Below, piece after piece: positions 4,054-55,073 of a stretch of 64,000 bases of DNA. The position numbers and the translations under genes are program-made. The DNA lies in IMG/VR virus record IMGVR_UViG_3300047095_000752, positions 124,001 to 188,000 of that record. One strand, given 5' to 3'. Within the stretch, counting starts at the first letter, position 1. The number at the start of each line of letters is the position of its first letter. This stretch comes from a virus. The notes under the pieces are model-generated. The model was not told the DNA's origin and ran no database searches. It worked only from the letters and a program-made list of their open reading frames with translations.

Positions 4054-4809
4054 ATGTCAAAAGCACACAGTCACGATTTTGTATTTAAGACATACGCAGC
4101 CGAGAACTACACGCTGGTTACTATGTATACCAATAGCCATAGTAAAGATGAATTACGTTGCCCCAAAGGGCATAAAGTAGATATGCTTTTTACAAATTTT
4201 TACAATAAAGGGTGTAGATGTCTAAAGTGTTCAGGATCTGAGAAATTTGATCATGAATTTGTATTTAATGAATATGCCAAAGAAGGGTATATTATGAAAA
4301 ATATTTATAAAAATTGTGATACACCTGATGAGTTACTTTGCCCTAGAAAACATGATGTACAAGCGCGTTTCTCGTATTTTCGGAGGGGTGACCGTTGTAG
4401 ATTTTGTAAATATGAAAATATACAGGGAGAAAATCATCCAAAATTTAATCCAGATCGAACTAGAGTGCGTAGATGTGCATATTTATCATTTAATTTAAAT
4501 AAAATTCAAATTTTACGGGATGATCCGAACTACGATCTGTATTTATCGTCGTATAATGAGGCGGAATTCCAAAGAAAACTTACTGGGAATAAATATATTA
4601 AATCCATCATGTCTGTAGATCATATATTACCACGAGTCGCTTTTATTGACAATAATTTAGATGAAATTTATGATAAAAAGGTAATTAAAAAAATCTGCAA
4701 CCTCCGTGAAAACTTACGAATAATACCAAAAGAAGAAAATGGCACTAAATCCGGCAAGTACAACCAAGATGAATTTATGAAATGGTTTATGTCTAAGATT
4801 AATACTTAA
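4054..4809 (+). CDS. HNH homing endonuclease with two zinc-ribbon repeats
   Basis: 251 aa. Two tandem units of about 65 residues, each of the form HxFVFxxYA..GY....Y, C-P-x-x-H, F..F, C-x-x-C, form probable zinc-binding DNA-recognition modules (residues ~5-125). The C-terminal HNH nuclease contains SVDHILPRVAFIDNN and ICNLRENLRIIPKEENG. Ribosome site AAGGAAG. It lies between two minus-strand operons, opposite in direction, and its 3' end overlaps a convergent gene by 11 bp, as expected of an invading mobile gene. Close sister of the copy at 5304. Confidence 0.9.
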   Translation: MSKAHSHDFVFKTYAAENYTLVTMYTNSHSKDELRCPKGHKVDMLFTNFYNKGCRCLKCSGSEKFDHEFVFNEYAKEGYIMKNIYKNCDTPDELLCPRKHDVQARFSYFRRGDRCRFCKYENIQGENHPKFNPDRTRVRRCAYLSFNLNKIQILRDDPNYDLYLSSYNEAEFQRKLTGNKYIKSIMSVDHILPRVAFIDNNLDEIYDKKVIKKICNLRENLRIIPKEENGTKSGKYNQDEFMKWFMSKINT

Positions 4810-5280: not shown

Positions 5281-5303
5281 TATAGTTGAAAGAGGAATTT
5301 GAT

Positions 5304-6059
5304 ATGCCAGCAAAACTTAAACATGAATTCGTATTTAATGAATATGCTAAACGGGGATATACGTTACTCGACCTATATAAAAATAGTGATCATAAATCTA
5401 AAGTTATGTGCCCAAAAGGGTGTGTTACAGAAATGAGATATAATAATTTTAAATACGGTGCGGACTGCTTGTTATGTTCCGGGGTTGCCCCGTATACCCA
5501 CGAATTTATATTTAATGAATATGCCAAAGAGGGTTATGTATTAGATAGTATATATAAAAGAAATAAGCATAAAGATGACCTGATCTGCCCACGTGGACAT
5601 AAAATAAAAATGAAATATAATAATTTTCAACAAGGGGATCGGTGTAGAGATTGTAAGTATGAAGACATGAGTGGTGAAAATCATTATCGGTTTAATCATG
5701 ACCGTACACGCAAGCGCCGGACGGATTATCTTCGTTTTGATTTAAGAAGAATTAAAATTTTAAAAGATGATCCGAACTATGATACATACAAATCCGCAAA
5801 GATTAAATCCAAACTTGAAAGTAAACTTAATAATAACCCCCATGTGAAATGTAGTATGACTGTAGATCATATATTTCCACGTACAGCATTTATAGATAAT
5901 GATTTGGACTTAATTCACGATTCCAAAATTATACAAAAAATATGTAACTTACGTGAAAACTTAAGGATCTTACCAAGAGAAGAGAATGGATCCAAGGGTG
6001 GAAAATACGATCAAGAAGAGTTCATGAAATGGTTTAGTGAAATAATAAAAAAATATTGA
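5304..6059 (+). CDS. HNH homing endonuclease with two zinc-ribbon repeats
   Basis: 251 aa, same length and layout as the copy at 4054: two C-P-x-G-C/H ... C-x-x-C repeats (HEFVFNEYAKRGY, HEFIFNEYAKEGY) and an HNH core TVDHIFPRTAFIDND with ICNLRENLRILPREENG. The first repeat has CPKGC where the others have CP-GH. Start ATG with GAGGAA, preferred over an upstream TTG. It stands on the plus strand between a minus-strand late operon terminator and two small minus-strand genes, so it probably inserted into an existing minus-strand unit. Confidence 0.9.
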   Translation: MPAKLKHEFVFNEYAKRGYTLLDLYKNSDHKSKVMCPKGCVTEMRYNNFKYGADCLLCSGVAPYTHEFIFNEYAKEGYVLDSIYKRNKHKDDLICPRGHKIKMKYNNFQQGDRCRDCKYEDMSGENHYRFNHDRTRKRRTDYLRFDLRRIKILKDDPNYDTYKSAKIKSKLESKLNNNPHVKCSMTVDHIFPRTAFIDNDLDLIHDSKIIQKICNLRENLRILPREENGSKGGKYDQEEFMKWFSEIIKKY

Positions 6060-6640: not shown

Positions 6641-7578
6641 TATCGTTCTCCCGCTGGTTTCGCTGCTTGTGCTGCCTTTGCTGGGCAACTTAGTGGGGTC
6701 TGGATGAATGAACTCTGCCCCTTGATTAATACTTTACCGCCAGTTTTGATCCCGGCTGCTTGCTTTCCTTCAATAAATACAGATGCGGAACTGGATTTCA
6801 TATTCATGGATCCTTTTGACTCAAGTGCAGCCAACCCATCTGTTTTTATATCGACTCCACCTTTAGCTTTAACTTGGAATTTACCTTCCGTCTCAAACAT
6901 TATGTCGCCTTTAAATTTACATTCTAATGTTTGTTTTTCTATATCAAAATTAATATAATCGCCCTTATGTGTTTTTATAATTAATTTTTCACTACCTTCG
7001 CGCTCGTCGATTAGGATTACAGTCTGGTTTCCATCAACCTCGTACACAGATGCCGCGTTACCTGAAGGTCCTTCTGAGTCGTCCAGCTTTCTCTTCTTAC
7101 CTGTTATCTCTACTCTCTGTTGATCCGGGGAGTCGCAAACTACAACGGATCTACCCATCCCAGATGTAATTACAGTATAAACTTTATGGGGTTCGTCTAC
7201 ATTTCGGTTAACTGCAGGTAGTGGAACCGCTTTCTCTTGCCAAGGACCTAAATAGAAGGCTCTTTCCATGTCACTATCTTCAAATTGGACTCTCACATAT
7301 GAATTCAATAATGGGATAAAAACATTAGCTGCAGCAAAGTGTGAGGAACTTTCAGGGTCGTCTTCATTGTAGCCGCCCAGTCCCATATTTGAAGGATATG
7401 CTAAAATACCATCTTTGAATTCGTCCAGTTCTTCGTGGATTTCCTTGGACATTAATTCTGGTATGTAAACTCTAACAGCGCCGTATTTATTCTTTTCCCC
7501 GTCATCATCTACATCGACTTCCGTAACGCGGGCGCGGTAGATCTTATCATACTTCTTTTCTTGCTTGGCTGGAGGCAT
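6640..7578 (-). CDS. Baseplate hub spike protein, gp5/VgrG-like
   Basis: 312 aa. The N-terminal ~130 residues form an OB-fold-like domain (YRARVTEVDVDDDGEKNKYGAVRVYIPE ... VFIPLLNSYVRVQFEDSD, here given in two pieces, then FYLGPW), as in T4 gp5 and VgrG. The remainder is a repetitive beta stretch (KLIIKTHKGDYINFD, GDIMFETEGKFQVKAKGG, MNMKSSSASVFIEG) that should wind into a trimeric beta-helix needle. Unlike T4 gp5 it carries no internal lysozyme domain; a separate amidase follows in an overlapping frame. It punctures the outer membrane during tail contraction. Confidence 0.88.
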   Translation of the reverse strand: MPPAKQEKKYDKIYRARVTEVDVDDDGEKNKYGAVRVYIPELMSKEIHEELDEFKDGILAYPSNMGLGGYNEDDPESSSHFAAANVFIPLLNSYVRVQFEDSDMERAFYLGPWQEKAVPLPAVNRNVDEPHKVYTVITSGMGRSVVVCDSPDQQRVEITGKKRKLDDSEGPSGNAASVYEVDGNQTVILIDEREGSEKLIIKTHKGDYINFDIEKQTLECKFKGDIMFETEGKFQVKAKGGVDIKTDGLAALESKGSMNMKSSSASVFIEGKQAAGIKTGGKVLIKGQSSFIQTPLSCPAKAAQAAKPAGER

Positions 7579-7587
7579 TTTATATCC

Positions 7588-7962
7588 TTAATCGTCTTCA
7601 TGTTTTTGAGCAGCTATAACTCTATTTTGTGCAACTTGAATATTTCTTAAATATCCAAAACATACTCTACGTTCGTCAGGATCCATTATATCATCACAGC
7701 CGTGCTTGATCCATCTCTTACGCTTAACCTTATCTACAAGCTCTCTAGCAAGCATCCCACCCCCTGCAATAGCCGCTCCCATGGCAGCATACTTAATCCC
7801 AGTATTTAATTTACTTGAAACTTCTCTTGTAGCTTCTTTTGGATCTAAGTACCCAGCTTCCGCTAAATATTTATATTCTGCTACAGTTAAATTAGACATG
7901 GCTTCTTGGATTAAAGCATCTAATCTTTCTTGTAGTTTCAATAATCTTTGTATGTCATTCAT
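7588..7962 (-). CDS. Putative prohead-targeted cargo protein, MN-type leader, CX11C
   Basis: 124 aa. Leader MNDIQRLLKLQERLDALIQ continuing to LTVAEYKYLAEAG is homologous to those of six other genes in this operon and resembles a capsid-targeting sequence with a possible cleavage after YLAE. Then a Gly/Ala-rich helix (YAAMGAAIAGGGMLA, residues ~57-72), a basic segment WIKHG and a Cys pair CDDIMDPDERRVC with the DP-x-x-R signature. The 76-aa protein at 18766 and the two at 55.2-56.0 kb share this Cys module. Role inferred, not known: a virion-packaged, ejected, membrane-active protein. Confidence 0.85.
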   Translation of the reverse strand: MNDIQRLLKLQERLDALIQEAMSNLTVAEYKYLAEAGYLDPKEATREVSSKLNTGIKYAAMGAAIAGGGMLARELVDKVKRKRWIKHGCDDIMDPDERRVCFGYLRNIQVAQNRVIAAQKHEDD

Positions 7963-7977
7963 AATACAATTTCCTTA

Positions 7978-8247
7978 CTATCTTTTTAATAATGGAGGTC
8001 CGGTTGGTAACTGATTTTTAAGTCTTTGTTGATGTCTTTCTTCTACTGCTTTTTGTTTCTTTTCAATCTCTTTTTCAAATTGATATATAATTTGTTTACG
8101 TCTTAAATCTCTATCTCGAATAGCTTTACGTGTAGCAGCAATTGAAGCACCCGCCATAAGACCAGCACCAATTCCCGCTGCAGCTTTAAGTCCGGCTTTA
8201 ACTCCGGATTCAATTAATTTATTTTTAGCATTAGTTAAAATACTCAT
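7978..8247 (-). CDS. Putative prohead-targeted cargo protein, MSIL-type leader
   Basis: 89 aa. Leader MSILTNAKNKLIE, with a potential prohead-protease site after LIE, then a Gly/Ala helix (AGIGAGLMAGASIAATRKA) and a long, highly charged helix (YQFEKEIEKKQKAVEERHQQR) that could be a coiled coil. No Cys pair. Architecture as in the neighbours; function unknown. Confidence 0.8.
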   Translation of the reverse strand: MSILTNAKNKLIESGVKAGLKAAAGIGAGLMAGASIAATRKAIRDRDLRRKQIIYQFEKEIEKKQKAVEERHQQRLKNQLPTGPPLLKR

Positions 8248-8251
8248 TTAA

Positions 8252-8668
8252 TTAACCCTTATTCAGATATGAATCGACCATATCCTTACCACGATTTGCT
8301 AAGCCTTTAGCACGGTCGACCACATCTTGTGTAAAGGTTGTCTTTCTTGTACTCTTCATCCAGTTTATACACTGTTTATATTCCGGTGTATTTCTTCCAT
8401 ATTTTCTATGGCATGTATTGTATATACCGCTTAGGTCGGCATTTCGATTCATTAACTTTGTATCTTGTCTATCATCATACCTCCCCTTAGCCCACCCACC
8501 AGCCATTAAAGTAGGTACGACGGCTGCAGTGCCCTTCCAGAATTTTTTAGTTTTTGCTAAATCTATACCAGATCTGACCAGTTGTCCGGCGTGTCTACCA
8601 ATAGTTCCGGCTAGACCTTCATTTAAAAATTCTTCTAAATTTTTATTCGAATTATTTAAAATACTCAT
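8252..8668 (-). CDS. Putative prohead-targeted cargo protein, MSIL-type leader, CX13C
   Basis: 138 aa. Leader MSILNNSNKNLEEFLNE followed by GLAG: a textbook LxE-like site. Hydrophobic segment GTAAVVPTLMAGGWA near residue 50, then CHRKYGRNTPEYKQC, closely similar to the Cys modules of the genes at 9230 and 9622. Basic C-terminus. Between near-identical-type paralogs with 4-20 bp spacers. Confidence 0.85.
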   Translation of the reverse strand: MSILNNSNKNLEEFLNEGLAGTIGRHAGQLVRSGIDLAKTKKFWKGTAAVVPTLMAGGWAKGRYDDRQDTKLMNRNADLSGIYNTCHRKYGRNTPEYKQCINWMKSTRKTTFTQDVVDRAKGLANRGKDMVDSYLNKG

Positions 8669-8688
8669 ATTATCAATACCTTTATTTA

Positions 8689-9216
8689 TTACTTATTGTC
8701 ATAATACATAAAAGAGCTATCACTACCTAACGCAGCCGCCCCTACATTTAGAGCGCCATTTATAGTGGCTAATCTAGCGAACTTTTTTAGTTGTTGATTT
8801 CTGTACTGTCTCTTCGCTTCTTCCTTCTCTGCTTTCAGTCTTGCTAATTCTTTATCCTTAGCACCATTTCGGATTTTATCTTCAACTCTGTCGATCTTTC
8901 TCTTTAAATCTCCAGATCCTTTTTGAACATAGGCGGCGGCAACACATCGGTTATATGATCTAGTTCCCTTTTCACCAACTGCTAAACAGTCAATAATTGG
9001 ATTTCTAATTTTTCCATCTTTACCACCGGCTTTGTTTAGGCGCATTTTATCACCAATTTTATTTCTAGCTACATTACCAGCACCAAGTCCGGTAATGACA
9101 CCTGCTGTAAGTGCTTTATTATTTTTAACTGCGTTTAAAGCCGTACCAATTGATTTACTTAATACACTTTCTTTTAACAATTGTAGTTCATGATTAGATT
9201 TATTCAAAATGCTCAT
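8689..9216 (-). CDS. Putative prohead-targeted cargo protein, MSIL-type leader, CX13C
   Basis: 175 aa. Leader MSILNKSNHELQLLKE, potential cleavage after LLKE. Small-residue helix ALTAGVITGLGAGNVA, Cys pair CLAVGEKGTRSYNRC, then a long charged helical region (KRKIDRVEDKIRNGAKDKE ... KEEAKRQYRN) likely to be a coiled coil, and a second hydrophobic stretch LATINGALNVGAAALG near the C-terminus. This is one of the few members with two candidate membrane segments. Confidence 0.85.
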   Translation of the reverse strand: MSILNKSNHELQLLKESVLSKSIGTALNAVKNNKALTAGVITGLGAGNVARNKIGDKMRLNKAGGKDGKIRNPIIDCLAVGEKGTRSYNRCVAAAYVQKGSGDLKRKIDRVEDKIRNGAKDKELARLKAEKEEAKRQYRNQQLKKFARLATINGALNVGAAALGSDSSFMYYDNK

Positions 9217-28291: not shown

Positions 28292-28678
28292 CTACGATTT
28301 GGCTTTGTAGTACTTTATACCAAGTTTGTCTAGCTCCGATTTTAACAATTGAATTCGCTCTTCGGAACTACTACAACAATCATTCTTTGTAATTGTATTT
28401 GAAACTCGGGTTGAATTCCAACCATATACTTTTCGCATTATACTAAGTGTGGTCATCTTTTGCTTTGAATTTTTATTTTCACACAGATTATATGTTATAC
28501 CATCGTCACCCTTTGGTTCCGAGTTTCTCAATATTGACTTTGATATTCCAGCTTTATTTATTAAAAACCCAACTAGACATTGACAGTCATCTTTATCGCA
28601 GAAGCTGCCTTTTATAAGCTTATCAGGTAACTGAACACGGGACGGCTTCTTGAGTGTGGGGGCTTTGACTGTTTTCAT
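28292..28678 (-). CDS. Hypothetical cysteine-containing protein, 128 aa
   Basis: Not recognised. N-terminal basic tail (KTVKAPTLKKPSRVQ), then GSFCDKDDCQCLVGFLINK and YNLCENKN, later NDCCSSSEERI. The start, behind AAAGGAA, lies 56 bp inside the 3' end of the upstream HNH gene, so the HNH frame has grown into this gene. Confidence 0.7.
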   Translation of the reverse strand: MKTVKAPTLKKPSRVQLPDKLIKGSFCDKDDCQCLVGFLINKAGISKSILRNSEPKGDDGITYNLCENKNSKQKMTTLSIMRKVYGWNSTRVSNTITKNDCCSSSEERIQLLKSELDKLGIKYYKAKS

Positions 28679-29624
28679 TTTCGTATTCCTTTAGTCTAAG
28701 GTTAAACCAAGTGAGAAATTCATCTTGGTTGTATTTGGCTCTCTTGTCTGAGTTCTCGGTTCTTGTGATTATTCTTAAGTTTTCTCTTAAGTTGCAAATG
28801 GATTTGATTATGGCTTTATCATATTTTATGTCAAAATCGTTATCAACGAAAGCCGCTCGCGGAAATATATGATCCACTTCGTAAATATTTCTGAGATCGT
28901 GACGATGCTTTCTATTGTGTTTTGCTAGATATTTATTATTTAAAAAATCATTGTAGTTTGGATCATCTGATAGAATGTGAATTTGACTGTGGTGAAATGA
29001 TAAAAATTTTCGGCGAATATCTCTGGTCCGATCTATATTCCATCTCGTGTGGTTTTCACCTGATATACTTTTATAAAAACATTCTCTACATTTATAACCA
29101 TATTGAAAATCCCCAAATGTACGTTCAGATTTATGACCAGCCGGGCATTTCATTTCAAGTTTTGTATTAGCGTTTTTATATTCAGTGCTTAATAGAATAT
29201 AACCTGTAGATTCGATTGTTGATTTAACGTGTTCATATGAATGTTTTACTAAACCTGCGCATATCTTACATCTATTATTGTTATCTTTAAAACTATTAAA
29301 TATAACATCGTATGTATGATCTTTTGGGCATTTAACTGTTAATTTACTACAATTATTTTCATACACTCCCGATATATATTTATAACCTTTTGACTCTATA
29401 TAATTTATAACATCGTTTATATCTAATTTTCGTTTATTTAAACTGCATTGTTTACATCTACGTCCCGCTTTAAAATTGTTGTATATGGAGTAAAATATAT
29501 GATCATCGGGACATTTAATCTTTAGTTTATCACTATTTTTGGTATATGTTTTACTTAGTAGTTTATACCCGCTTTCTTTTTCAATTTCATTTTTAACATA
29601 TTCGTATTCTAATTTCTTAGGCAT
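28623..29624 (-). CDS. HNH homing endonuclease with three zinc-ribbon repeats
   Basis: 333 aa. Three C-P-x-x-H ... C-x-x-C repeats (LKIKCPDDHIFYSIYNNF, LTVKCPKDHTYDVIFNSF, LEMKCPAGHKSERTFGDF) followed by the HNH core EVDHIFPRAAFVDND and ICNLRENLRIITRTENS. Its ATG is immediately adjacent to the stop of the DNA polymerase N-terminal gene (TAA then ATG), exactly at the polymerase truncation point, implying that the element caused or moved the split. Confidence 0.92.
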   Translation of the reverse strand: MPKKLEYEYVKNEIEKESGYKLLSKTYTKNSDKLKIKCPDDHIFYSIYNNFKAGRRCKQCSLNKRKLDINDVINYIESKGYKYISGVYENNCSKLTVKCPKDHTYDVIFNSFKDNNNRCKICAGLVKHSYEHVKSTIESTGYILLSTEYKNANTKLEMKCPAGHKSERTFGDFQYGYKCRECFYKSISGENHTRWNIDRTRDIRRKFLSFHHSQIHILSDDPNYNDFLNNKYLAKHNRKHRHDLRNIYEVDHIFPRAAFVDNDFDIKYDKAIIKSICNLRENLRIITRTENSDKRAKYNQDEFLTWFNLRLKEYENENSQSPHTQEAVPCSVT

Positions 29625-31967
29625 TTATATCACTCCGTTGTCACTCAGATAATCTCCGATCAAGATGAACATACTGTCAGTATCGCCGTATGCAACATAT
29701 GGTAGATCGGAATTCTCAAAGTGTTCGATGTAGGATGTTTTAATAGTTGAATCATCCGTCTGTAAATAATTTGAAAGATGATATACGGAAAATTTAAGGG
29801 CTTCTTGACCTGTGCTGGTGATCGCTTTCGCCATATCTAGATTGTACATACGGAAAAATGGCAACCCCAGGATCCCATAAATGCTATTGCTGACAATTTT
29901 ATAACTGCTCTGTTTATTATCAAATTGCTTTAATTCTACCTTCATCCGCTCCTTAGTCACAGGATCCAGATCCGTATTTGTATTAATTTCTTGTCTAAGA
30001 TCGCCTAATTTCTTTTTATAAAGATCGCGCTGATCGCCCAAGTGAGTTAACACTTCGTGGAAGAATGATAGCTCAACTTCATGTTGAACAAAAAGGCATC
30101 CATTAATCGTTATAATATAATCATTCTTTACTATGAATTCTTCAAACTCAGCCGGAGTTAAATATATATCTTCGCTGGATCTAAGGATCGGATTAAGTGT
30201 AACCTTAATTTGATCCGGTAGTTGTGATTTTTTATATAGATATGAATATGCGTCTTTTTCTGACACTTTACCTTTGTATGTATTAGGTCCTATATTCATA
30301 GATTGAATTATTGATGGATACAGTGATTTAAAGTCAAAATCGACAACCCACTGGTGAACACCTACCTTTGGTTCCAGTACATATGCCCCTGAGAATGTCG
30401 CGTGATTTTGTTTTATTGAATTTCTGCATACTAAATTCTTATCCTTAGCGAACTTCAATAGAATTGGATCAACAAGACCAGATGTGGTCTCAGCCCGTCT
30501 CCAAGTACTACTACAAGTCTTTATAAGTTCAAATCGCAAATCTATATGGTGGAGAGCGTCTTCAAGTTCAGATAGCAGTACAGTATCAACCCCAGAATAT
30601 AATATAAACTTAACAAGATCACTTTCGTACATAGTATTAATGGTACCTTCAAAAGCGACTTTACCTTCACCCAGTACCTTCTGTGATATATTATTTAATT
30701 TATAACTTTCTTCTACATTTTGCGTAAGTTTTTTATATATTGCTAATTGGTCTACCATATATAGACCATATACTGTCGTCCCATAATATTCACTTATGTC
30801 AACATCAGCAAGTCCGATTGGAGACAATGAATCTACATCCAATCCCAATTTATGCATGCGATTTACTGTATAGGGCACATCGAATAGCTCTGAATTCCAC
30901 CCCGCCCAAACATCAGGATCGAGTTCTTTTGCTTTTTCTATAAATGCCGTTATAAGATCAGCTTCTGAGTCAAAAATCTTTATAATATATTCATTAATCT
31001 CTGGGAACACGCTTAAATTATCATATAAGCTCTTATGCCCTTTATTGTATGATGTTGTGTCCATTTCAGGTAGTTGTAGAATATAGACGTGTGTAGCCCC
31101 ATCACTGTCCAGTTTAAAAGATATCGAGTTAATCGGGAACTCAGCTTCAAGAGCGAATGGAAATGCTTTATGTTGTCCGGTATACACTTCAATATCCCAG
31201 TATAGTATCTTTAATTTATACTGGCATTCCGGTTCAGTTCTATTGTAATAATAGTCAATAGAATGTTTAATATCCGGTTTAACATCTTCTTCGTACATCG
31301 CTGTAGTTGGGAGAAGTCCAACTTTGGTTGTATGTAACTGTACGTCGGATACCTTCTTTATTATATCACTGTCTCTAATGTCCATAGGTACTGAATAGAA
31401 ATAAGTATCTTTTGAATTTACTGTGTGGTATTTTTTAGTTCCATTTGCATCTCTAAACACATATAGAATCTTACTTTTAAACTTATTGTATTGTATGTCA
31501 ATTAATATGTGATTTGAATCGTAACACCAATCGGGTAGTTTAAACGAGTGACATTTTGCTTCTTCATTTGTAACGACTGTGTTTATACTCTTTTCTCTAT
31601 TTTTAAAGTATAATTTAGATATGGTAGTAAATTGCTCTTCTACGAACGAATAGAAAAAGTCCAATTCACTACATACCTCGTCTAGATCATAAGTGATCAT
31701 CAACTTTATATCTTTATATTTAATACCTTTACCTACAACAGACTCAAACTTATCACCCAACTCGTCGTTAAACGTTTTCGTCACACCCTCCCCCATAATT
31801 ACAGTGAGTGTAGCATCTGTAGCTTTGATGTGATCTTCGGTTAGCTTACTTGTTGGATATATTTTATGATCTATCTTATCGAAGTTGTTAGTCTTCAAGA
31901 TCTTTTTGAATAACTTATTTTTTATAGTTTCTTGATTTGCATAAATTGCAATTGGAATTGAAGCCAC
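29625..31967 (-). CDS. Family-B DNA polymerase, N-terminal part (exonuclease and palm to motif C)
   Basis: 780 aa. 3'-5' exonuclease motifs: YWDIEVYTG near residue 258 (D-x-E), ELFDVPYTVNRM, and YSGVDTVLL. Polymerase motif A DFDFKSLYPSII near 545, motif B KIVSNSIYG near 690, motif C YGDTDS at about 760-765. The frame ends 15 residues after motif C, so the rest of the palm and the thumb (about 250 residues in T4 gp43) are missing. That missing part is the separate gene at 34430, upstream on the same strand. The two chains must associate to give a working replicative polymerase. An HNH gene follows without a gap. Confidence 0.95.
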   Translation of the reverse strand: MASIPIAIYANQETIKNKLFKKILKTNNFDKIDHKIYPTSKLTEDHIKATDATLTVIMGEGVTKTFNDELGDKFESVVGKGIKYKDIKLMITYDLDEVCSELDFFYSFVEEQFTTISKLYFKNREKSINTVVTNEEAKCHSFKLPDWCYDSNHILIDIQYNKFKSKILYVFRDANGTKKYHTVNSKDTYFYSVPMDIRDSDIIKKVSDVQLHTTKVGLLPTTAMYEEDVKPDIKHSIDYYYNRTEPECQYKLKILYWDIEVYTGQHKAFPFALEAEFPINSISFKLDSDGATHVYILQLPEMDTTSYNKGHKSLYDNLSVFPEINEYIIKIFDSEADLITAFIEKAKELDPDVWAGWNSELFDVPYTVNRMHKLGLDVDSLSPIGLADVDISEYYGTTVYGLYMVDQLAIYKKLTQNVEESYKLNNISQKVLGEGKVAFEGTINTMYESDLVKFILYSGVDTVLLSELEDALHHIDLRFELIKTCSSTWRRAETTSGLVDPILLKFAKDKNLVCRNSIKQNHATFSGAYVLEPKVGVHQWVVDFDFKSLYPSIIQSMNIGPNTYKGKVSEKDAYSYLYKKSQLPDQIKVTLNPILRSSEDIYLTPAEFEEFIVKNDYIITINGCLFVQHEVELSFFHEVLTHLGDQRDLYKKKLGDLRQEINTNTDLDPVTKERMKVELKQFDNKQSSYKIVSNSIYGILGLPFFRMYNLDMAKAITSTGQEALKFSVYHLSNYLQTDDSTIKTSYIEHFENSDLPYVAYGDTDSMFILIGDYLSDNGVI

Positions 31968-31984
31968 GTGAAGTACCTTTTGGT

Positions 31985-32347
31985 TTATCTTTTAAATGCA
32001 GTTCTACGAATCAATCGAGTTGTATTTTTTCTGCTTACAAAATCATTTTCTGGAATCATATGATATAAATCTAAAAGAGACATACTCGCAAATTTACTAA
32101 ATAAAACTTTAAACATAGAATTTAAAATATAATCAAATCCATCGAGTCTTTCATAGGGTCTCTTTATGAATTTTGTTTTTTTATTATCATTTTTACAAAT
32201 AATAAATACGAATGAGAAAAAGTCAACTAATACACTATGTATAGCATCATGAATTAATAATGTAGTATAATATTCTATGTTTAGGTGATATCTAAATTTA
32301 GGCATAATTAAATACATGGGGTTGTAATAGTTTTCTTTTTTGTTCAC
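31985..32347 (-). CDS. Hypothetical protein, 120 aa, GTG start
   Basis: Not recognised. GTG start overlapping the preceding stop (GTGA). Hydrophobic stretch VDFFSFVFIICKN, Tyr/Lys-rich. One of three small overlapping genes placed between the two polymerase halves. Confidence 0.6.
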   Translation of the reverse strand: MNKKENYYNPMYLIMPKFRYHLNIEYYTTLLIHDAIHSVLVDFFSFVFIICKNDNKKTKFIKRPYERLDGFDYILNSMFKVLFSKFASMSLLDLYHMIPENDFVSRKNTTRLIRRTAFKR

Positions 32348-32658
32348 TTTATAACCCTTACATTTTCATGATAGCGGTTGAATAGTTCTGAGTTACTACA
32401 GTAGTTGTGGTTATAATTTATTGTGAAGGATCTTCGGAAATTAGATCTGATCCCTAAGTCTAAAATTTTAACCGTGAACTTGAATTTCAGTCTGTTGAAA
32501 TCCAGATGTACGGTATAATAATCATTTCCTAATATTATAGCTATAAGTTTGGATAATTTTTTAACTTCTATTTGTTCCAACATATATGATATATAATATA
32601 TATTACTCCCGATATATCGAATTGATATTGGTGGTATAACTATTACACCGTGTGCCAT
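32344..32658 (-). CDS. Hypothetical protein, 104 aa
   Basis: Not recognised. Beta-rich look (YYTVHLDFNRLKFKFTVKIL), basic. Overlaps the upstream gene by 16 bp and the downstream by 4. Confidence 0.6.
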   Translation of the reverse strand: MAHGVIVIPPISIRYIGSNIYYISYMLEQIEVKKLSKLIAIILGNDYYTVHLDFNRLKFKFTVKILDLGIRSNFRRSFTINYNHNYCSNSELFNRYHENVRVIK

Positions 32659-33113
32659 AAATGCTCGTACTGATAATGGGTATATGACATTTGCTTAAAT
32701 TCAGTTCTTCTAAATTTATTTGAAGTTTTATCTTGTACAAGTATAGAACCATAAAACCAACATATCGCACGTAGATTGGCTGCGATTGGATAATGTATAT
32801 ATAAGGATAACTGAGTCAGGCATCCATAATATATATGCTTATCACTTTCGTTTCGGATACCATTTATTTTAAGTGTATTTTCGTTTTTCTTTCTGCGATA
32901 TCTTGGGATTATTATATTTGCATTCTTTCTTAGTGTAACCGACAACAATCCTTGAATGACACACATGGTCCTACCAAGTCCTTGTTGAAGTGTTTTTATT
33001 TTACCTTTATTCCCATATGAGATATCTTGATGTTGGTCGTGGATTTTATAATGATCTATATTTGGAAAGAATAAAAATAAAAATGGACTTTTACTTCTCT
33101 TTCTTATACTCAT
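32643..33113 (-). CDS. Hypothetical basic protein, 156 aa
   Basis: Not recognised. MSIRKRSKSPFLFLFF start; strongly basic with Tyr/His (YKIHDQHQDISYGNKGK; YRRKKNENTLK). ATGA overlap with the metallopeptidase-like gene. Confidence 0.6.
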   Translation of the reverse strand: MSIRKRSKSPFLFLFFPNIDHYKIHDQHQDISYGNKGKIKTLQQGLGRTMCVIQGLLSVTLRKNANIIIPRYRRKKNENTLKINGIRNESDKHIYYGCLTQLSLYIHYPIAANLRAICWFYGSILVQDKTSNKFRRTEFKQMSYTHYQYEHLWHTV

Positions 33114-33445
33114 AGCAGTTTTATAAAGTTGGGGTTATTTTTTATTAGGGCGAGTAACGAATGTGATAATACTTCGATCATTTGCTCATAGAAGGAGTCG
33201 TCATCCTCGTCTAGGTTTAGACCGGCTTGAATCAGTATAGCGTGAAGGATCTCGTGTAAAATTGTAACTTCCATTTTACCTTTAGCTAAGGAACGTTTTA
33301 TAACGAGTTTTAAATTCTCATTATCTGTGTACGCAGAATAGTCGCCATCCGGGGTCATTTTTGGCTCATCTTCAAATACAATCTGATAGGTTAATGGTGA
33401 TATATATATTTCTTTTAGATCTGTTATTTTTTTGGCATCGGACAC
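33110..33445 (-). CDS. HEXXH metallopeptidase-like protein
   Basis: 111 aa. VTILHEILHAILIQAGL near residue 65 gives the H-E-x-x-H zinc motif on a helix, with acidic residues following (DEDDDSFYEQMIEVL) that include a possible third ligand. Small phage and bacterial HEXXH proteins of this size are known; the substrate is not. GTG start with AGAGG at good spacing, lying inside the 3' end of the HNH gene. Confidence 0.7.
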   Translation of the reverse strand: MSDAKKITDLKEIYISPLTYQIVFEDEPKMTPDGDYSAYTDNENLKLVIKRSLAKGKMEVTILHEILHAILIQAGLNLDEDDDSFYEQMIEVLSHSLLALIKNNPNFIKLL

Positions 33446-34404
33446 TGTGTTGACCTCTCGGTTGTATCGGTTGTATTATATTCATTTATCTTTTCATTAA
33501 ACCAAGCCATAAATTCTTCTTGGTTGTATTTACCACCTTTAGTGTTGTTATCTTTTTCGTGTATTATTCTTAAGTTTTCTCGTAGGTTGCAGATCTCTTT
33601 TATTATAGCCGGATCGTATATATTATCTAAGTTGTTATCAATAAATGCTATTCTCGGTTGAATGTGATCTACCGTATAATCAGATCTGTCCCATATATTA
33701 CTTGATGTCTTGGCGAGTTTTTGAGATTGGACGTGATTGTTGTAATTCGGATCATCATTTAATATATGTATTTTTTTATAATCAAACGATAAATATTTAG
33801 TTCTAGTTTGTCGGGTCCGGTCAGTCATCCAACGAACGTTATTTTCACCAGACTTATTTTCATAGGAACATTCCCTACACCTAACATCATTATTTTTAAA
33901 ATTATCAAAGATCATTTCTATTTTATGATTTTTAGGGCACAGTAGTTCGTCTTTATTTTTACAGCCTTTATATTCGGAAATTAACGTATAGCCATGATCT
34001 TTATAATAATTAAATACAAAATCATGACTATATTGCATTTTTATCTTATGACATTCTATACATCTACGTCGAGTCCTAAAATGGCTAAAACTCATTTCTA
34101 TTTTATGACCTTTCGGACATATCAATTCATCTTTTGTCATACACCCTTTATATTTAGAATTTAATGTATACCCACGTTTTTTATAATAATTTTCTACATA
34201 ACTTTCATCAGTTCTTTTATTTATATTTGAACATTCTCTACACTTGTGTCCGTTTTTAAAACTATTGAATAGCATTTCTATTTTATGATTTTTAGGACAT
34301 AATAATGTATTTTTTGTACGGGTATTAACATATTGTGTAAGTAATGTGTATCCACGTTCTGCATAATAATTAAATACGAATTCATGTGTTAATTTGTTTG
34401 GCAT
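33424..34404 (-). CDS. HNH homing endonuclease with three zinc-ribbon repeats
   Basis: 326 aa. Three repeats (HEFVFNYYAERGY, ESYVENYYKKRGY, HDFVFNYYKDHGY, each followed by C-P-K-x-H and C-x-E-C) and HNH core TVDHIQPRIAFIDNN with ICNLRENLRIIHEKDN. It follows the DNA polymerase C-terminal gene by 25 bp and precedes the metallopeptidase gene, overlapping it. Confidence 0.92.
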   Translation of the reverse strand: MPNKLTHEFVFNYYAERGYTLLTQYVNTRTKNTLLCPKNHKIEMLFNSFKNGHKCRECSNINKRTDESYVENYYKKRGYTLNSKYKGCMTKDELICPKGHKIEMSFSHFRTRRRCIECHKIKMQYSHDFVFNYYKDHGYTLISEYKGCKNKDELLCPKNHKIEMIFDNFKNNDVRCRECSYENKSGENNVRWMTDRTRQTRTKYLSFDYKKIHILNDDPNYNNHVQSQKLAKTSSNIWDRSDYTVDHIQPRIAFIDNNLDNIYDPAIIKEICNLRENLRIIHEKDNNTKGGKYNQEEFMAWFNEKINEYNTTDTTERSTQCPMPKK

Positions 34405-34429
34405 AACTTTTCCTACATTATAGTTTAGT

Positions 34430-35206
34430 TTATTGAAATACTTGATCCATAGAATTTATGTTGTTTTGAATAAGAGCAAGAAGTACTTCCTTTACTCTGT
34501 CCGTCCATACGAATCGCAATTGTTCTGCCACGTTACATACATAATAGTCGGGTAACGATTCCTCTTCTGCGGGTAGGACCATATATTTCTGCTTAGATCC
34601 AATTAAATGCATGTTATCCAGAATACGCTGAGGTGCTTTCATTGGGTCGATCCCATTTATCCGGAAAAGATAACCTTTTGTACCGGGCGCAAAAGTTCGA
34701 TACTCTAGCATATTCCATAAGATCATCGCTTGTACCTGATACGGTGGCTTTCCCTTATATTCAGAAAGTGGCTTCGAAAAGTTCACGGATCCAGCAATCA
34801 ACTTAGAATTTTGATTACATAATTGTATAACTTCTTTTTCCGTGTCGACAATAAATTGCTTAATTTCATTTATGTTGATCTTCTCTACTTTCAAGATCAT
34901 ATCTAAGAGAGCTTGTACCTTTTCTTTGGTGTAAACCGGAAAGTTAGAGCGACGAATCACAAGTCCTTTTAGGTCGAATTCGGATACAGTTTTACCTTCT
35001 TTATTTTTTATAAAAAGACCATATTTCTTTTTTGTAAAGAATACCGCATTACTTGCCAATACTTCTTGTTTCAATTTTAGAGCATTATATTTGGGATTGG
35101 CTCGGTGCATCCTTATGAATTCGGGTAGTAGATCTTTATTTAAAATGTCTTCTAGCTTATGACACTCTTTTAAAACAATCTGTATAAGTTCTTCTTCGGT
35201 TTTCAT
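34430..35206 (-). CDS. Family-B DNA polymerase, C-terminal part (palm end and thumb)
   Basis: 258 aa. Collinear with T4 gp43 downstream of motif C: FFTKKKYGLFIKNKEG corresponds to the KKRYALN (KxY) motif, FDLKGLVIRRSNFPVYTK to the GLE-x-x-(K/R)SSTPK segment, EYKGKPPYQVQAMILWN to the YNRAI region of the thumb, and IGSKQKYMVLPAEEES to KVYVLPL. It begins exactly where the N-terminal gene stops and has its own ATG overlapping the gp62-like stop (ATGA). The natural T4 order is gp62 then polymerase, so this piece holds the ancestral site while the N-terminal piece lies 2.5 kb downstream. Confidence 0.85.
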   Translation of the reverse strand: MKTEEELIQIVLKECHKLEDILNKDLLPEFIRMHRANPKYNALKLKQEVLASNAVFFTKKKYGLFIKNKEGKTVSEFDLKGLVIRRSNFPVYTKEKVQALLDMILKVEKININEIKQFIVDTEKEVIQLCNQNSKLIAGSVNFSKPLSEYKGKPPYQVQAMILWNMLEYRTFAPGTKGYLFRINGIDPMKAPQRILDNMHLIGSKQKYMVLPAEEESLPDYYVCNVAEQLRFVWTDRVKEVLLALIQNNINSMDQVFQ

Positions 35207-35670
35207 CTAAAAAGTTTCTTTTCAGCGATTGTTATTTTCTTTTTGGTTGGTTTTTTATTAGTCAACATATCTATAAGAGCTTTATTCTTTTCTTTTTCTG
35301 CAATCTTCATTAAAAGATCTATTTCATATTTTTTAAGTAGTGGGAATTTATCTTGAAGATCCTTGTATTCATATTTCTCTTTTTTCATATTTACATAGGA
35401 TAAAGTCCAAGGCGTTAATCTATTCTTTGTAGCTAGTTGTTTCAATTCTTTAAAGAAGCTCATTTTATATGGTTGTAAATTTTTATCATACAAATTATAT
35501 TTATTATATAGATCATTTAAGTATATAGTTATATCCGAGTTGATACAAGTAAACATTGCCAAAGCACTTACAATGTAAATAGCCTTGGTAATGTCTGGAT
35601 CTAATTCGGATTTCATATCACCGTCGCATAACCACTGTTTAAAAGTGTTATACGGACTTACTGGTGCCAT
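35203..35670 (-). CDS. Clamp-loader small subunit, gp62-like
   Basis: 155 aa. Pattern of the phage clamp-loader A family: a short N-terminal domain (YNTFKQWLCDG), DPDITKAIYIVSALAMF, YLNDLYNKYNLYDKNLQPY, FFKELKQLATKNRLTPW, and a helical C-terminus (FPLLKKYEIDLLMKIAEK). It would join four gp44-type ATPases to load the sliding clamp. The position directly upstream of polymerase sequence (62-43 order) supports this. Similarity is by pattern only. Confidence 0.65.
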   Translation of the reverse strand: MAPVSPYNTFKQWLCDGDMKSELDPDITKAIYIVSALAMFTCINSDITIYLNDLYNKYNLYDKNLQPYKMSFFKELKQLATKNRLTPWTLSYVNMKKEKYEYKDLQDKFPLLKKYEIDLLMKIAEKEKNKALIDMLTNKKPTKKKITIAEKKLFR

Positions 35671-45097: not shown

Positions 45098-46087
45098 ATG
45101 CCTGACCTTATTCGGGATAAAATGTGGGTCGAGAAATATCGACCACGCGACCTGAAGGACTTAATCCTTCCGGATAATATGAAATCATTTTTTGAAAATT
45201 GTATAGCAAATAAATCGATACCAAATTTAATATTACATGGTCGCCCCGGAACGGGTAAGACTACATTAGCTCAAATATTAATTGATAATATAGTTGGTAC
45301 ATCCAGCGAAGACAGAGAATATAATTTACTACAATTGAATGGAAGTTTAAATACCGGTGTAGATACTGCCAGAAATCTTATAACCGGATTCATTAAGATT
45401 CCCGCCCTTAATGAATCACAATTGAAAATTATACATATTGACGAGGCAGACTACACATCCAGCGCGTTGCAAGCTGCCTTAAGAAATATAATTGAAGAGA
45501 GTGCATCTTCATGTCGATTTATTTTTACACTAAATTCTAAACATAAGATTATGGAAGCCTTATTTTCTCGTTGCCAATCGTTCGAATTTAAGAAAACCAT
45601 ATCTAAAGAATATATCCTAAAACATATAGCAAATATACTAAAAATTGAAACTGGTCTTGAAAATAAAGATAGTATTATCTCAGAACATATTAAAAGATCA
45701 TACCCAGATATTAGACGAATTATAAACGATGTCCAACAGACTGTTGTAGACAATGTAATATCAGAAGAAATAGTAATACAACATACATTTGAAGATGACA
45801 TTATAAATAATATTAAAGAATTTGGTAAATATGTAAAATTGAATGATAAAGTTGGATTGACATCCAAAATAAAAGAAATTGAAAAACTATTAAATGATAA
45901 TGATATAGATTATATTAATATATACGAAAAATTGTTCGAAGATGAGGGGATAAGCTTCGCATCAAAGATATTAGTAAGCGAACATTGTAATAAACATCAA
46001 GATACATTAGTACCTAATATGAACTTTATAGCAATGCTTTATAAAATAATCGAAACTATGTATAAAAAATTAAAACTGATATCATAA
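45098..46087 (+). CDS. Sliding-clamp loader large subunit, gp44/RFC-like AAA+ ATPase
   Basis: 329 aa. RFC-box start (WVEKYRPRDLKDLILPD), Walker A LHGRPGTGKTTLAQ near residue 47, Walker B IIHIDEAD near 112, RFC SRC motif LFSRCQSFEFK near 155, and a helical C-terminal collar. With the gp62-like protein it would load the sliding clamp at primer ends. First gene of an early operon, its ATGs coupled to the primase gene (overlap at ATAATGA). The sliding clamp (gp45) is not in the window. Confidence 0.93.
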   Translation: MPDLIRDKMWVEKYRPRDLKDLILPDNMKSFFENCIANKSIPNLILHGRPGTGKTTLAQILIDNIVGTSSEDREYNLLQLNGSLNTGVDTARNLITGFIKIPALNESQLKIIHIDEADYTSSALQAALRNIIEESASSCRFIFTLNSKHKIMEALFSRCQSFEFKKTISKEYILKHIANILKIETGLENKDSIISEHIKRSYPDIRRIINDVQQTVVDNVISEEIVIQHTFEDDIINNIKEFGKYVKLNDKVGLTSKIKEIEKLLNDNDIDYINIYEKLFEDEGISFASKILVSEHCNKHQDTLVPNMNFIAMLYKIIETMYKKLKLIS

Positions 46088-48793: not shown

Positions 48794-49798
48794 ATGAGTA
48801 ATACAAGATATAACATACAAACAGCAACCGAAGTGTTTAAACAATATGGTTTAGAATTACTCGAAACTGAATATAAAAATTTAGACGTACGAATGAAGTA
48901 TAAATGCTTAACATGTCATTATGTGGGGGATAAGCCTTTATATGATGTTTTAAGATTTAAATCTGGATGTAAAAGTTGTAATTTAAATAAATTATACGAA
49001 TCAAAGAAATATACCATAGATTTTGCGAGAGACAGTTTTTTAAAAAATGGGTTGATTCTATTAGATGATGTATATATAAATAATCAGACTCCTATGAAAT
49101 TTGAATGTGCAACGTGTTGTAATTCAGGTCAAAATAATTTAGCAAATATATTAAATCAAGGTCAAGGGTGTAAAAAATGTAAAGATGAGGCGTCAGCCTC
49201 CAAAAAACGATTCAATATAGAATATGCTAAAACTGTATATTTAGAAAAAAATTTAGAACTCCTTGAAAATGTTTATATAAATAGTAACACAAAAATGAAA
49301 TATCGGTGTTTGATTTGTAATTATATAGGACAAAATAGTTTAGGTAGTATGGATGATAAAAGCCGTGGGTGTAGAGAATGTCATTATAGAAATATGTGCG
49401 GTAAAAATCATTGGGCGTGGAATCCCAAAAAAACTGAATTGAATGAAATGATTAGAGTAAAAAGATCTAAACATTGGGTTATAAAACATATGACTGATGA
49501 TCCGTTGTATAATGAATGGTTATTAGGGTATGACACTTATGAAATTCACCACACTCCTCAAATTAATGACTGGAGTTCGTATTTAATTGAAAATAACCTA
49601 ACTGATAATAATGAAATTATAATGTATGTAAGAGAGACTGCAAATACTAGAGAAAGACTTAGTATAGTTCCGACTAAAATTCATAAATCCATGCATAAAA
49701 ATAGAAGTTATAAGTTCAATAAAGAAAAATTCGAAAAATTTTTAGAAGAAAATGATATAGGAGTATTAGATTATGCCAATCGAAGTCCCATACAATGA
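48794..49798 (+). CDS. HNH homing endonuclease, diverged, three zinc-ribbon repeats
   Basis: 334 aa. Three C-x-x-C(H) ... C-x-x-C repeats (MKYKCLTCHYVGDK, MKFECATCCNSGQN, MKYRCLICNYIGQN), using C-x-x-C in place of the C-P-x-x-H seen in the sisters. The nuclease core is different: YEIHHTPQINDWSSY and TRERLSIVPTKIHKSMH, an HNH variant. It separates two tail-fibre genes and overlaps the next by 26 bp. Confidence 0.85.
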   Translation: MSNTRYNIQTATEVFKQYGLELLETEYKNLDVRMKYKCLTCHYVGDKPLYDVLRFKSGCKSCNLNKLYESKKYTIDFARDSFLKNGLILLDDVYINNQTPMKFECATCCNSGQNNLANILNQGQGCKKCKDEASASKKRFNIEYAKTVYLEKNLELLENVYINSNTKMKYRCLICNYIGQNSLGSMDDKSRGCRECHYRNMCGKNHWAWNPKKTELNEMIRVKRSKHWVIKHMTDDPLYNEWLLGYDTYEIHHTPQINDWSSYLIENNLTDNNEIIMYVRETANTRERLSIVPTKIHKSMHKNRSYKFNKEKFEKFLEENDIGVLDYANRSPIQ

Positions 49799-52343: not shown

Positions 52344-53267
52344 ATGCCTAAAATAATAACACATAACGAAGTGTTTGAATATTACAAAAAAGAAGGTTAT
52401 GTTTTAGAATCTATATATAGAGGCTGTAAGTATAAAGACGAACTTATTTGCCCAGAAGGTCATAAGATTGAAATGACTTTTAATAACTTTAAAAGTTATG
52501 GTAAAAAGACGGGTAAAAGATGTGGTGAATGTTTCGGAACTGAAAAATATTCGCAAGAATATGTATTCAATTATTATAAAAAATATGGATATACACTAAG
52601 ATCTATCTATAAAAACAATCACACTAAAGACGAGTTAACATGCCCGGATAATCACAAAGTTGACATGTTATTTGATAATTTCAAAAATAAAGGCAGTCGT
52701 TGTGTAAAATGTTCCGGTGTTGAAAAATTTACTCAAGAATATGTATTTAATTATTATAAGAATGAAGGATATACATTAACAAGCATTTATAATGGGTGCG
52801 AGTCTAAAGATGAATTGATATGCCCCGAAGGTCACAAGATAGATATGCTTTTCAATAACTTCAAAAATAAAGATAGTAGATGTAAAGAATGTTATATAGA
52901 AAATAATAGGGGTGAAAACCATCCAAACTTTAACCCAAATAGAGAAGAACTTTTATTAAATCATAGATTAAGAACAAGTAAAAAGAATCCATGGATTAAA
53001 AAACATATGAAAGATGACCCAAATTATAACAATTGGATATTAGACTCAAAGCAATTTGTAGTAGATCATATAATACCGGTAAAGTTATTTTGTAAATTAT
53101 ATAATGAATATAATTTAGATGAATATAAACTTAGAAAAGCAATTAATAAAATAGACAATCTACAATTATTAACAATAGAACAAAATTCAAATAAACACGC
53201 CAAAGGTTGTATAAATGAAGCCAAGGAATATTTAATTAAAAACAATATACAATTAATCAACACATAA
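52344..53267 (+). CDS. HNH homing endonuclease with three zinc-ribbon repeats
   Basis: 307 aa. Three C-P-E/D-x-H ... C-x-x-C repeats (ELICPEGHKIEMTFNNF, ELTCPDNHKVDMLFDNF, ELICPEGHKIDMLFNNF) joined to a nuclease with FVVDHIIPVKLF and NLQLLTIEQNSNKHAKG, a different HNH subtype from most sisters (no LRENLRI). It interrupts a run of lysis-type genes with only 4 bp on its left. Confidence 0.9.
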   Translation: MPKIITHNEVFEYYKKEGYVLESIYRGCKYKDELICPEGHKIEMTFNNFKSYGKKTGKRCGECFGTEKYSQEYVFNYYKKYGYTLRSIYKNNHTKDELTCPDNHKVDMLFDNFKNKGSRCVKCSGVEKFTQEYVFNYYKNEGYTLTSIYNGCESKDELICPEGHKIDMLFNNFKNKDSRCKECYIENNRGENHPNFNPNREELLLNHRLRTSKKNPWIKKHMKDDPNYNNWILDSKQFVVDHIIPVKLFCKLYNEYNLDEYKLRKAINKIDNLQLLTIEQNSNKHAKGCINEAKEYLIKNNIQLINT

Positions 53268-53751: not shown

Positions 53752-54306
53752 ATGTACAAGCACACAATACTTTTAATTACAATTATGGTTGCACTTATGG
53801 GTTGTGCTTCCGATGGACAGGATGCTTTAGAAACGTACAAGTCACCTGAGATTACCTTTGAACCCACTTTAGAATATTCTCTAGACACTTCAAAGCTAGA
53901 CGATCTACATGAAGAGACTTTGAGTGGTTTACTCGATGCTCCTATTTATGCGAATATCACCGATGATGGTACTATGAGTTTAACTTTTGATGATACTGAG
54001 GCGAACGCCGTCTTACTTTACAGTGAAGATTATAGTAAGATCGCTGATCTTGCAGAAATCACCGAAGGTTATAGAAATATTGTTATGAGTCAAGTCGAAC
54101 TAATTAAGGTTAAGGATTCTACGATTCAAGCTTTACAACAATTAGTATTACTCCAGCAAAGTTCGAAAGAGATCTACAAGGAAAATTTCGTATTGGCGGA
54201 CAAGCTGTATAGGGCTGAACATAAGCTTAGGATGCGAGAAAAGGTATACGGAGAGATCAGGTTTTTTAGCACAATACTTGGCATTATAGCTGTTGGTGTT
54301 ATTTAA
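53752..54306 (+). CDS. Unimolecular spanin-like lipoprotein, 184 aa
   Basis: N-terminal lipoprotein signal (ITIMVALMGC, lipobox L-M-G-C with Cys18), a periplasmic helical body (residues ~60-165, GLLDAPIYANITDDG; LQQLVLLQQSSKEIYKE coiled coil) and a C-terminal hydrophobic segment (FFSTILGIIAVGVI). An outer-membrane lipid anchor plus inner-membrane C-terminal span is the u-spanin plan (as in T1 gp11), which fuses the two membranes in lysis of Gram-negative hosts. The C-terminal span is short (about 16 residues) and ends at an HNH gene (TAATG), so it may have been clipped by the insertion. Confidence 0.7.
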   Translation: MYKHTILLITIMVALMGCASDGQDALETYKSPEITFEPTLEYSLDTSKLDDLHEETLSGLLDAPIYANITDDGTMSLTFDDTEANAVLLYSEDYSKIADLAEITEGYRNIVMSQVELIKVKDSTIQALQQLVLLQQSSKEIYKENFVLADKLYRAEHKLRMREKVYGEIRFFSTILGIIAVGVI

Positions 54307-55073
54307 TGTCTCATAATAAATTACCATATGAAGAAGTTTATAAGGTCTTTAAAGATCAAGGCTGCGAATTATTAGGAAGAGAATACATTAATAAAAAAAC
54401 TTTAATGAAATATAGATGTAAGTGTGGTATTGAAGGTAAGATACGATTAAATAATTTTAAAGATGGTCAACGATGTCAAACGTGCCGATGTGATAGAAAA
54501 TCTAAATATGAAGACGCCTATAAGTGTTTCAAAGATCAAGGTTGCGAATTATTAGAAAATGAATATACATATATATCATCTAAATCTAAACTTAAATACA
54601 AATGTGAATGTGGTTTTCCCAGTATAATACGATTAGATGCTTTTAAGGGCGGGTCTCGATGTAAAGAATGTCAAAGATCAAATAGGATAGGTGAAAAAAA
54701 TTCAAATTATAAAACAGATAGGACACGAAAGCGGCGCGGAGATTTATTAAAATTTGACTACAAACATGAAATTATATTAAGTGATGATCCAATGTATAAC
54801 TTATATATAGCATCTAAACAAATATTCACACAAACAAAAAAATCTAAATATGGAGCTAAGCCTAAATATTCTATCGATCATATACAACCAAGAATTGCCT
54901 TTATCGATAATGATCTAGATAATATTCATGGTACAAAAATAATTAAGAAGATCTGTAACCTTCGTGAAAATCTTAGAATAATCCCAAAAGAAGAAAATGG
55001 ATCTAAAGGCGGCAAATACATCCAAGAAGAATTCATGGCTTGGTTCAATGATAAAATAAAGGAGTATGAATAA
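54306..55073 (+). CDS. HNH homing endonuclease with two zinc-ribbon repeats
   Basis: 255 aa. Two repeats in which the zinc ligands are C-x-C-G and C-x-x-C (MKYRCKCGIEGKIRLNNF, LKYKCECGFPSIIRLDAF), then HNH core SIDHIQPRIAFIDND and ICNLRENLRIIPKEENG, nearly identical to the genes at 4054 and 5304. Shares TAATG with both neighbours. Confidence 0.9.
   Translation: MSHNKLPYEEVYKVFKDQGCELLGREYINKKTLMKYRCKCGIEGKIRLNNFKDGQRCQTCRCDRKSKYEDAYKCFKDQGCELLENEYTYISSKSKLKYKCECGFPSIIRLDAFKGGSRCKECQRSNRIGEKNSNYKTDRTRKRRGDLLKFDYKHEIILSDDPMYNLYIASKQIFTQTKKSKYGAKPKYSIDHIQPRIAFIDNDLDNIHGTKIIKKICNLRENLRIIPKEENGSKGGKYIQEEFMAWFNDKIKEYE

What the first reader, a model, noticed from the sequence alone, without database searches (positions are those of the whole stretch)
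29625..35206. Replicative DNA polymerase split just after motif C, with the C-terminal half encoded upstream
The N-terminal gene (exonuclease, motifs A, B, C) stops about 15 residues past YGDTDS. The remainder (KKKYG, GL-x-x-RRSNFP, thumb) is a separate gene 2.5 kb upstream on the same strand, so the coding order is C-half then N-half. The C-half sits directly after the gp62-like gene, the T4 position. Split gp43 genes are known in T4-like phages through homing-endonuclease insertion, but reversed order is not something I know of. It implies relocation of the N-terminal half after the split, or a duplication and complementary loss.
Basis: partly seen in the sequence, partly recalled or inferred. 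Interest (0 to 1): 0.9.

Follow-up and report, generated by a model that had tools for sequence, protein, structure and literature searches.

The report
Phage DNA polymerase halves, order reversed
A giant phage makes its replicative DNA polymerase as two separate proteins whose genes lie in the opposite order to the protein, and a distant sister phage has the same swapped arrangement, so the swap is real, old and evidently tolerated by an essential enzyme.

Summary
The window lies in a 245-kb phage record whose only family-B DNA polymerase is in two same-strand genes. The C-terminal half (34430-35206) is upstream of the N-terminal half (29625-31967). The halves meet at one profile position with nothing missing or repeated, and neither has a second copy. 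I found a sister phage (G008, 223 kb; 38% and 43% identity to the two halves) with the same break to within a residue or two and the same C-then-N order. There the halves are 8 bp apart, with no endonuclease. Some 25 other relatives have an intact 1024-1127 aa polymerase, usually downstream of the gene that precedes the window's C-half. In G008 the pair occupies that ancestral slot. So the swap happened once, in place, before homing endonucleases and four small genes came between the halves in the window. Tandem duplication with complementary loss fits best; endonuclease splitting followed by relocation fits poorly. The halves most likely assemble without splicing into one gp43-type enzyme. 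Split phage and archaeal family-B polymerases are known. A reversed, conserved order I could not find described, and it was unique among 25 multi-ORF polymerase loci surveyed. Activity and the duplication step are inferred, not shown.

The parts
29625..31967 (-). N-terminal half of family-B DNA polymerase (780 aa): degenerate UDG-like extension, 3'-5' exonuclease, palm motifs A, B and C; ends 15 residues past YGDTDS
   Evidence: AlphaFold2 pLDDT 80, best PDB match RB69 gp43 E 1e-34
34430..35206 (-). C-terminal half of the same polymerase (258 aa): rest of palm with KKxY, thumb, C-terminal tail
   Evidence: AlphaFold2 pLDDT 87, best PDB match RB69 gp43 E 2e-9
31528..31967 (-). Part of the N-half that aligns with the UDG (uracil-DNA glycosylase-like) domain of relatives; motifs degenerate in the window
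   Evidence: relatives match PF03167 at E 1e-17 to 1e-19; window N-terminus has no hit; alignment
35203..35670 (-). Conserved gene upstream of polymerase in the lineage (clamp-loader small-subunit candidate by position only); its stop overlaps the C-half start (ATGA)
33424..34404 (-). CapR/HNH homing-endonuclease-type ORF (HNH1) directly after the C-half
31985..33445 (-). Four small genes between the halves (33110-33445 M78-peptidase-like; 32643-33113, 32344-32658, 31985-32347 no function); no match in the sister phage
28623..29624 (-). CapR/HNH homing-endonuclease-type ORF (HNH2) starting at the base after the N-half stop
45098..46087 (+). gp44-type clamp loader subunit, partner replisome gene
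   Evidence: PHROG 168 E 1e-58

Best explanation
An ancestral fused UDG-PolB gene sat downstream of the clamp-loader-like gene. In the common ancestor of this phage and phage G008 it was broken in the variable loop just after motif C, and the two parts ended up in swapped order in the same slot. The most likely route is tandem duplication of the gene, then loss of the N-part from the first copy and of the C-part from the second. Both halves are translated from one mRNA and assemble without splicing into one gp43-type replicative polymerase: exonuclease, fingers and catalytic palm from the N-half, the rest of the palm and the thumb from the C-half. In the window lineage, CapR/HNH endonuclease genes and four small genes later inserted between and after the halves. 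Shown: the split, the order, the complementarity, conservation in two genomes and the intact state in relatives. Inferred: co-transcription, assembly, activity and the duplication step.
For: Exact complementarity with no remnant (window; G008, profile 4-822 and 818-1067). Same break to within a residue or two in both genomes. G008 has C then N, 8 bp apart. The window and G008 are sisters in the N-half tree (93/90) and C-half tree (99/95). Intact relatives have the clamp-loader-like gene upstream. G008 keeps both ancestral flanks: the clamp-loader-like gene upstream and the 264, 461 and 498 aa genes downstream, which match 31, 28 and 21 entries of the lineage loci (copies of the same record included). 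All catalytic residues are retained, and identity of 38% and 43% between the two genomes with open frames kept implies long-term selection on both halves. The record has no other DNA polymerase of family A, B or C.
Against: No intermediate with two polymerase copies was seen. The duplication is inferred from outcome, and the 8-bp C-N junction would need trimming. Six genes lie between the clamp-loader-like gene and the C-half in G008. No structure of the complex was modelled. The window and G008 are long branches, so the sister grouping rests partly on the shared break and order. Both records are metagenomic.
Confidence: 0.7

Rival explanations
1. Homing endonuclease insertion split the gene in N-to-C order, and the N-half with HNH2 was later moved downstream of the C-half.
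For: HNH2 starts directly after the N-half stop and HNH1 follows the C-half. The record holds about 14 paralogues. RNAP beta in the same genome is split with an HNH at each edge while intact in G008. Such splits are known in T4-like phages (PMC2988022).
Against: G008 has the same reversed split without a detectable paralogue of HNH1 and with adjacent halves. HNH1 and HNH2 are not sisters among the paralogues. The reversed pair in G008 sits in the ancestral slot.
Confidence: 0.15
2. The order is an assembly artefact or chimera.
For: Both records are metagenome assemblies and no raw reads were available.
Against: Two contigs of different phages show the same order and break. Junctions are tight, with an ATGA overlap, a Shine-Dalgarno-like sequence and a zero-gap stop/start pair.
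Confidence: 0.02
3. The halves are joined by trans-splicing (split intein or split intron) into one chain.
For: Split-intein PolB exists in phage MIJ3 (PMC6892783) and, by inspection of the ORFs, in LR756508.
Against: Neither half carries extra intein sequence at the break; both end within the loop. No intron family was found.
Confidence: 0.04
4. The halves are decaying relics and another enzyme replicates the phage.
For: The UDG-like extension is degenerate in the window.
Against: Catalytic residues are intact, the open frames are conserved in two diverged genomes, and no other polymerase family was found.
Confidence: 0.05

Closest known systems
Split gp43A/gp43B of Aeromonas phages 25 and 44RR
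   Same: T4-type PolB in two chains; homing endonuclease gene next to the break in phage 25; 43A and 43B co-purify and have polymerase activity (PMC2988022)
   Different: Order is N then C, after gp62-regA; 43A is 498 aa, so the break is at a different site; the endonuclease lies between the halves
Split PolB of Methanothermobacter thermautotrophicus (Kelman et al. 1999)
   Same: Family-B polymerase in two polypeptides, broken between catalytic palm and thumb (my recollection; the paper is cited in PMC3984812)
   Different: Archaeal; genes unlinked (from memory); no swapped pair in one slot
Split-intein PolB of Pseudomonas jumbo phage MIJ3 and of uncultured phage LR756508
   Same: PolB in two genes with one or more genes between; in LR756508 the break is at motif C
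   Different: N-to-C order in LR756508 (order in MIJ3 not checked), with intein parts that would rejoin the chains
Multi-piece RNA polymerases of group 1 jumbo phages
   Same: Essential polymerase built from several separately encoded pieces (PMC7824862)
   Different: RNA polymerase; pieces regarded there as possibly ancient, whereas here intact relatives show the split is derived

Membership tests
T4 gp43-type family-B replicative DNA polymerase | Exonuclease acidic residues and polymerase motifs A, B, C and KKxY | tested here: met
   All present across the two chains
T4 gp43-type family-B replicative DNA polymerase | gp43 fold | tested here: met
   Both predicted halves match RB69 gp43 first
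T4 gp43-type family-B replicative DNA polymerase | Polymerase activity of the assembled enzyme | not testable with these tools
   Needs biochemistry
Endonuclease-split gp43 (Aeromonas phage 25 kind) | N-half upstream of C-half | tested here: not met
   C-half is upstream in the window and in G008
Endonuclease-split gp43 (Aeromonas phage 25 kind) | Endonuclease gene between the halves at the break | tested here: inconclusive
   One follows each half in the window; no match to HNH1 in G008
Split-intein polymerase | Intein sequence at the ends facing the break | tested here: not met
   Halves end in the native loop
UDG-PolB lineage of uncultured phages | N-terminal UDG-like domain fused to PolB; clamp-loader-like gene upstream | tested here: met
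   the window's UDG-like domain is degenerate and has no library hit of its own

The most novel reading that the evidence does not exclude
A replicative DNA polymerase gene was split and its halves swapped in place by tandem duplication and complementary loss, giving a gene-level circular permutation that has been kept through deep divergence in at least two giant phage lineages. It would be the first such case known for a replicative polymerase.
Probability: 0.55. Interest if true: 0.7.

Novelty: new variant of a known kind. Interest (0 to 1): 0.62.

Why it matters
It shows that an essential polymerase can be broken right beside its active-site motif and, by inference, reassembled from two chains over long evolutionary time. 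The adjacent pair in G008 and the intact relatives mark the steps: intact gene, swapped pair, swapped pair invaded by endonucleases. That makes it testable whether endonucleases cause gene splits or colonise genes already split. The natural break is also a ready design for a two-part polymerase.

Tried and rejected
Single-protein searches of viral contigs with either half, and of genome contigs with the N-half, found no relatives; only the pattern and lineage-alignment scans did. A terminase search of viral contigs found none. Intron or RNA elements near the break: none. Recombination between HNH1 and HNH2 as the mover: they are not sisters. gp62 identity of the upstream gene: not supported by profile comparison, kept only as a positional candidate. 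More reversed loci: among 238 loci, 207 intact, 6 one-sided and 25 multi-ORF; the only reversed entries were L154 and L246, which are the same record. The last scan, with the two C-halves, found no third case. dN/dS was not attempted at this divergence.

Full report
What is there. The window is bases 124001-188000 of a 245,225-bp viral record. On the minus strand, in transcription order, lie a small zinc-finger-like gene, a 155-aa conserved gene, the polymerase C-half (34430-35206), HNH1 (33424-34404), four small genes, the polymerase N-half (29625-31967), HNH2 (28623-29624) and a 128-aa ORF. Gaps from the zinc-finger-like gene to HNH2 are 25 bp or less and many genes overlap. The N-half GTG has AAGG a few bases upstream, HNH2's ATG follows the N-half stop with no gap, and the C-half ATG overlaps the preceding stop. 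This looks like one polycistronic unit, which is an inference.

The halves are complementary. Pfam, PHROG and a profile from intact relatives all place the N-half up to, and the C-half from, nearly the same position. The break maps to about T4 gp43 residue 636/637. From recalled RB69 domain limits that is inside the palm, after motif C and before KKxY and the thumb. No residue of the core is lost or doubled. All catalytic residues are present. AlphaFold2 models of each half match RB69 gp43 best. No other PolB, PolA or PolIII alpha match exists in the record.

Relatives. The best-matching named phages are only about 30% identical in the N-half. A pattern scan and an alignment scan of viral contigs found a lineage of uncultured phages with a fused UDG-PolB of 1024-1127 aa. 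In 23 of 33 loci a relative of the 155-aa gene is in the locus, usually just upstream of polymerase. It is not recognisable as gp62 by profile.

The key finding is G008, a 223,370-bp contig (L154). Its polymerase is split at the same place, and the C-half (261 aa) lies 8 bp upstream of the N-half (842 aa) on the same strand. Identity to the window halves is 43% and 38%. The genomes share several dozen proteins, including the zinc-finger-like gene and the clamp-loader-like gene upstream of the polymerase pair. Downstream, G008 keeps 264, 461 and 498 aa genes whose relatives lie downstream of intact polymerase elsewhere. So the pair sits in the ancestral slot. Trees of each half group the window with G008, though both branches are long. 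G008 has no match to the HNH1 protein and none to the window's four intervening genes.

Interpretation. One event in the shared ancestor swapped the halves in place. A single insertion cannot do this. Tandem duplication followed by loss of the first N-part and the second C-part does it without moving anything, and is the route by which circular permutations are usually explained (established knowledge). Endonucleases came later in the window lineage: HNH1 and HNH2 belong to a family of about 14 paralogues in the record and are not each other's closest kin. That family can accompany real splits: RNAP beta is one 1350-aa gene in G008 but two genes with an HNH at each edge here, in N-to-C order.

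Function. The simplest mechanism is two chains translated from one message that assemble without splicing. The precedent is gp43A/43B of Aeromonas phage 25, which co-purify and are active (PMC2988022). That pair is in N-to-C order and breaks elsewhere. No intein or intron was found at the break. Assembly and activity here are not shown.

Novelty. Split PolB is known in phages and archaea (Kelman et al. 1999, cited in PMC3984812). In a survey of 238 polymerase loci, 207 were intact and 25 multi-ORF; the only reversed entries were the two copies of G008. Literature searches in an open-access library found no reversed case, which is weak evidence of absence because most subscription papers are not held.

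Noticed in passing
[quoted passage not shown] the sister phage has it intact (1350 aa).
   Followed up: partly
window 4054-4809, 5286-6059, 28623-29624, 33424-34404, 48794-49798, 52344-53267, 54306-55073, and elsewhere in the record: About 14 paralogues of a CapR/HNH homing-endonuclease-type family are spread through the record, next to terminase and RNA polymerase genes among others.
   Followed up: partly
L010, L011, L014 and window start: The record combines T4-like polymerase, clamp loader and terminase with what look like two sets of multisubunit RNA polymerase genes.
   Followed up: partly
L235:11617-16461 (-): RNA polymerase beta-prime of G008 (1614 aa) has LAGLIDADG and weak intein-splicing matches, with a roughly 500-residue insertion next to the NADFDGD region: probable intein.
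   Followed up: no
L004:856-3909 and 6915-8780: In the 484-kb phage LR756508 the PolB gene appears split by a split intein at motif C with several genes between the halves.
   Followed up: no
window 31528-31967: The UDG-like domain fused to the polymerase is recognisable in relatives but degenerate in the window.
   Followed up: partly
L156:8791-9672: A CapR/HNH ORF sits between the clamp-loader-like gene and an intact polymerase in another relative, so this endonuclease family visits the polymerase locus independently.
   Followed up: no
G004 and G006 (L152, L153): Divergent PolB-like ORFs of 665 and 724 aa about 17 kb apart if circular, suggesting a different split between exonuclease and polymerase parts.
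   Followed up: no
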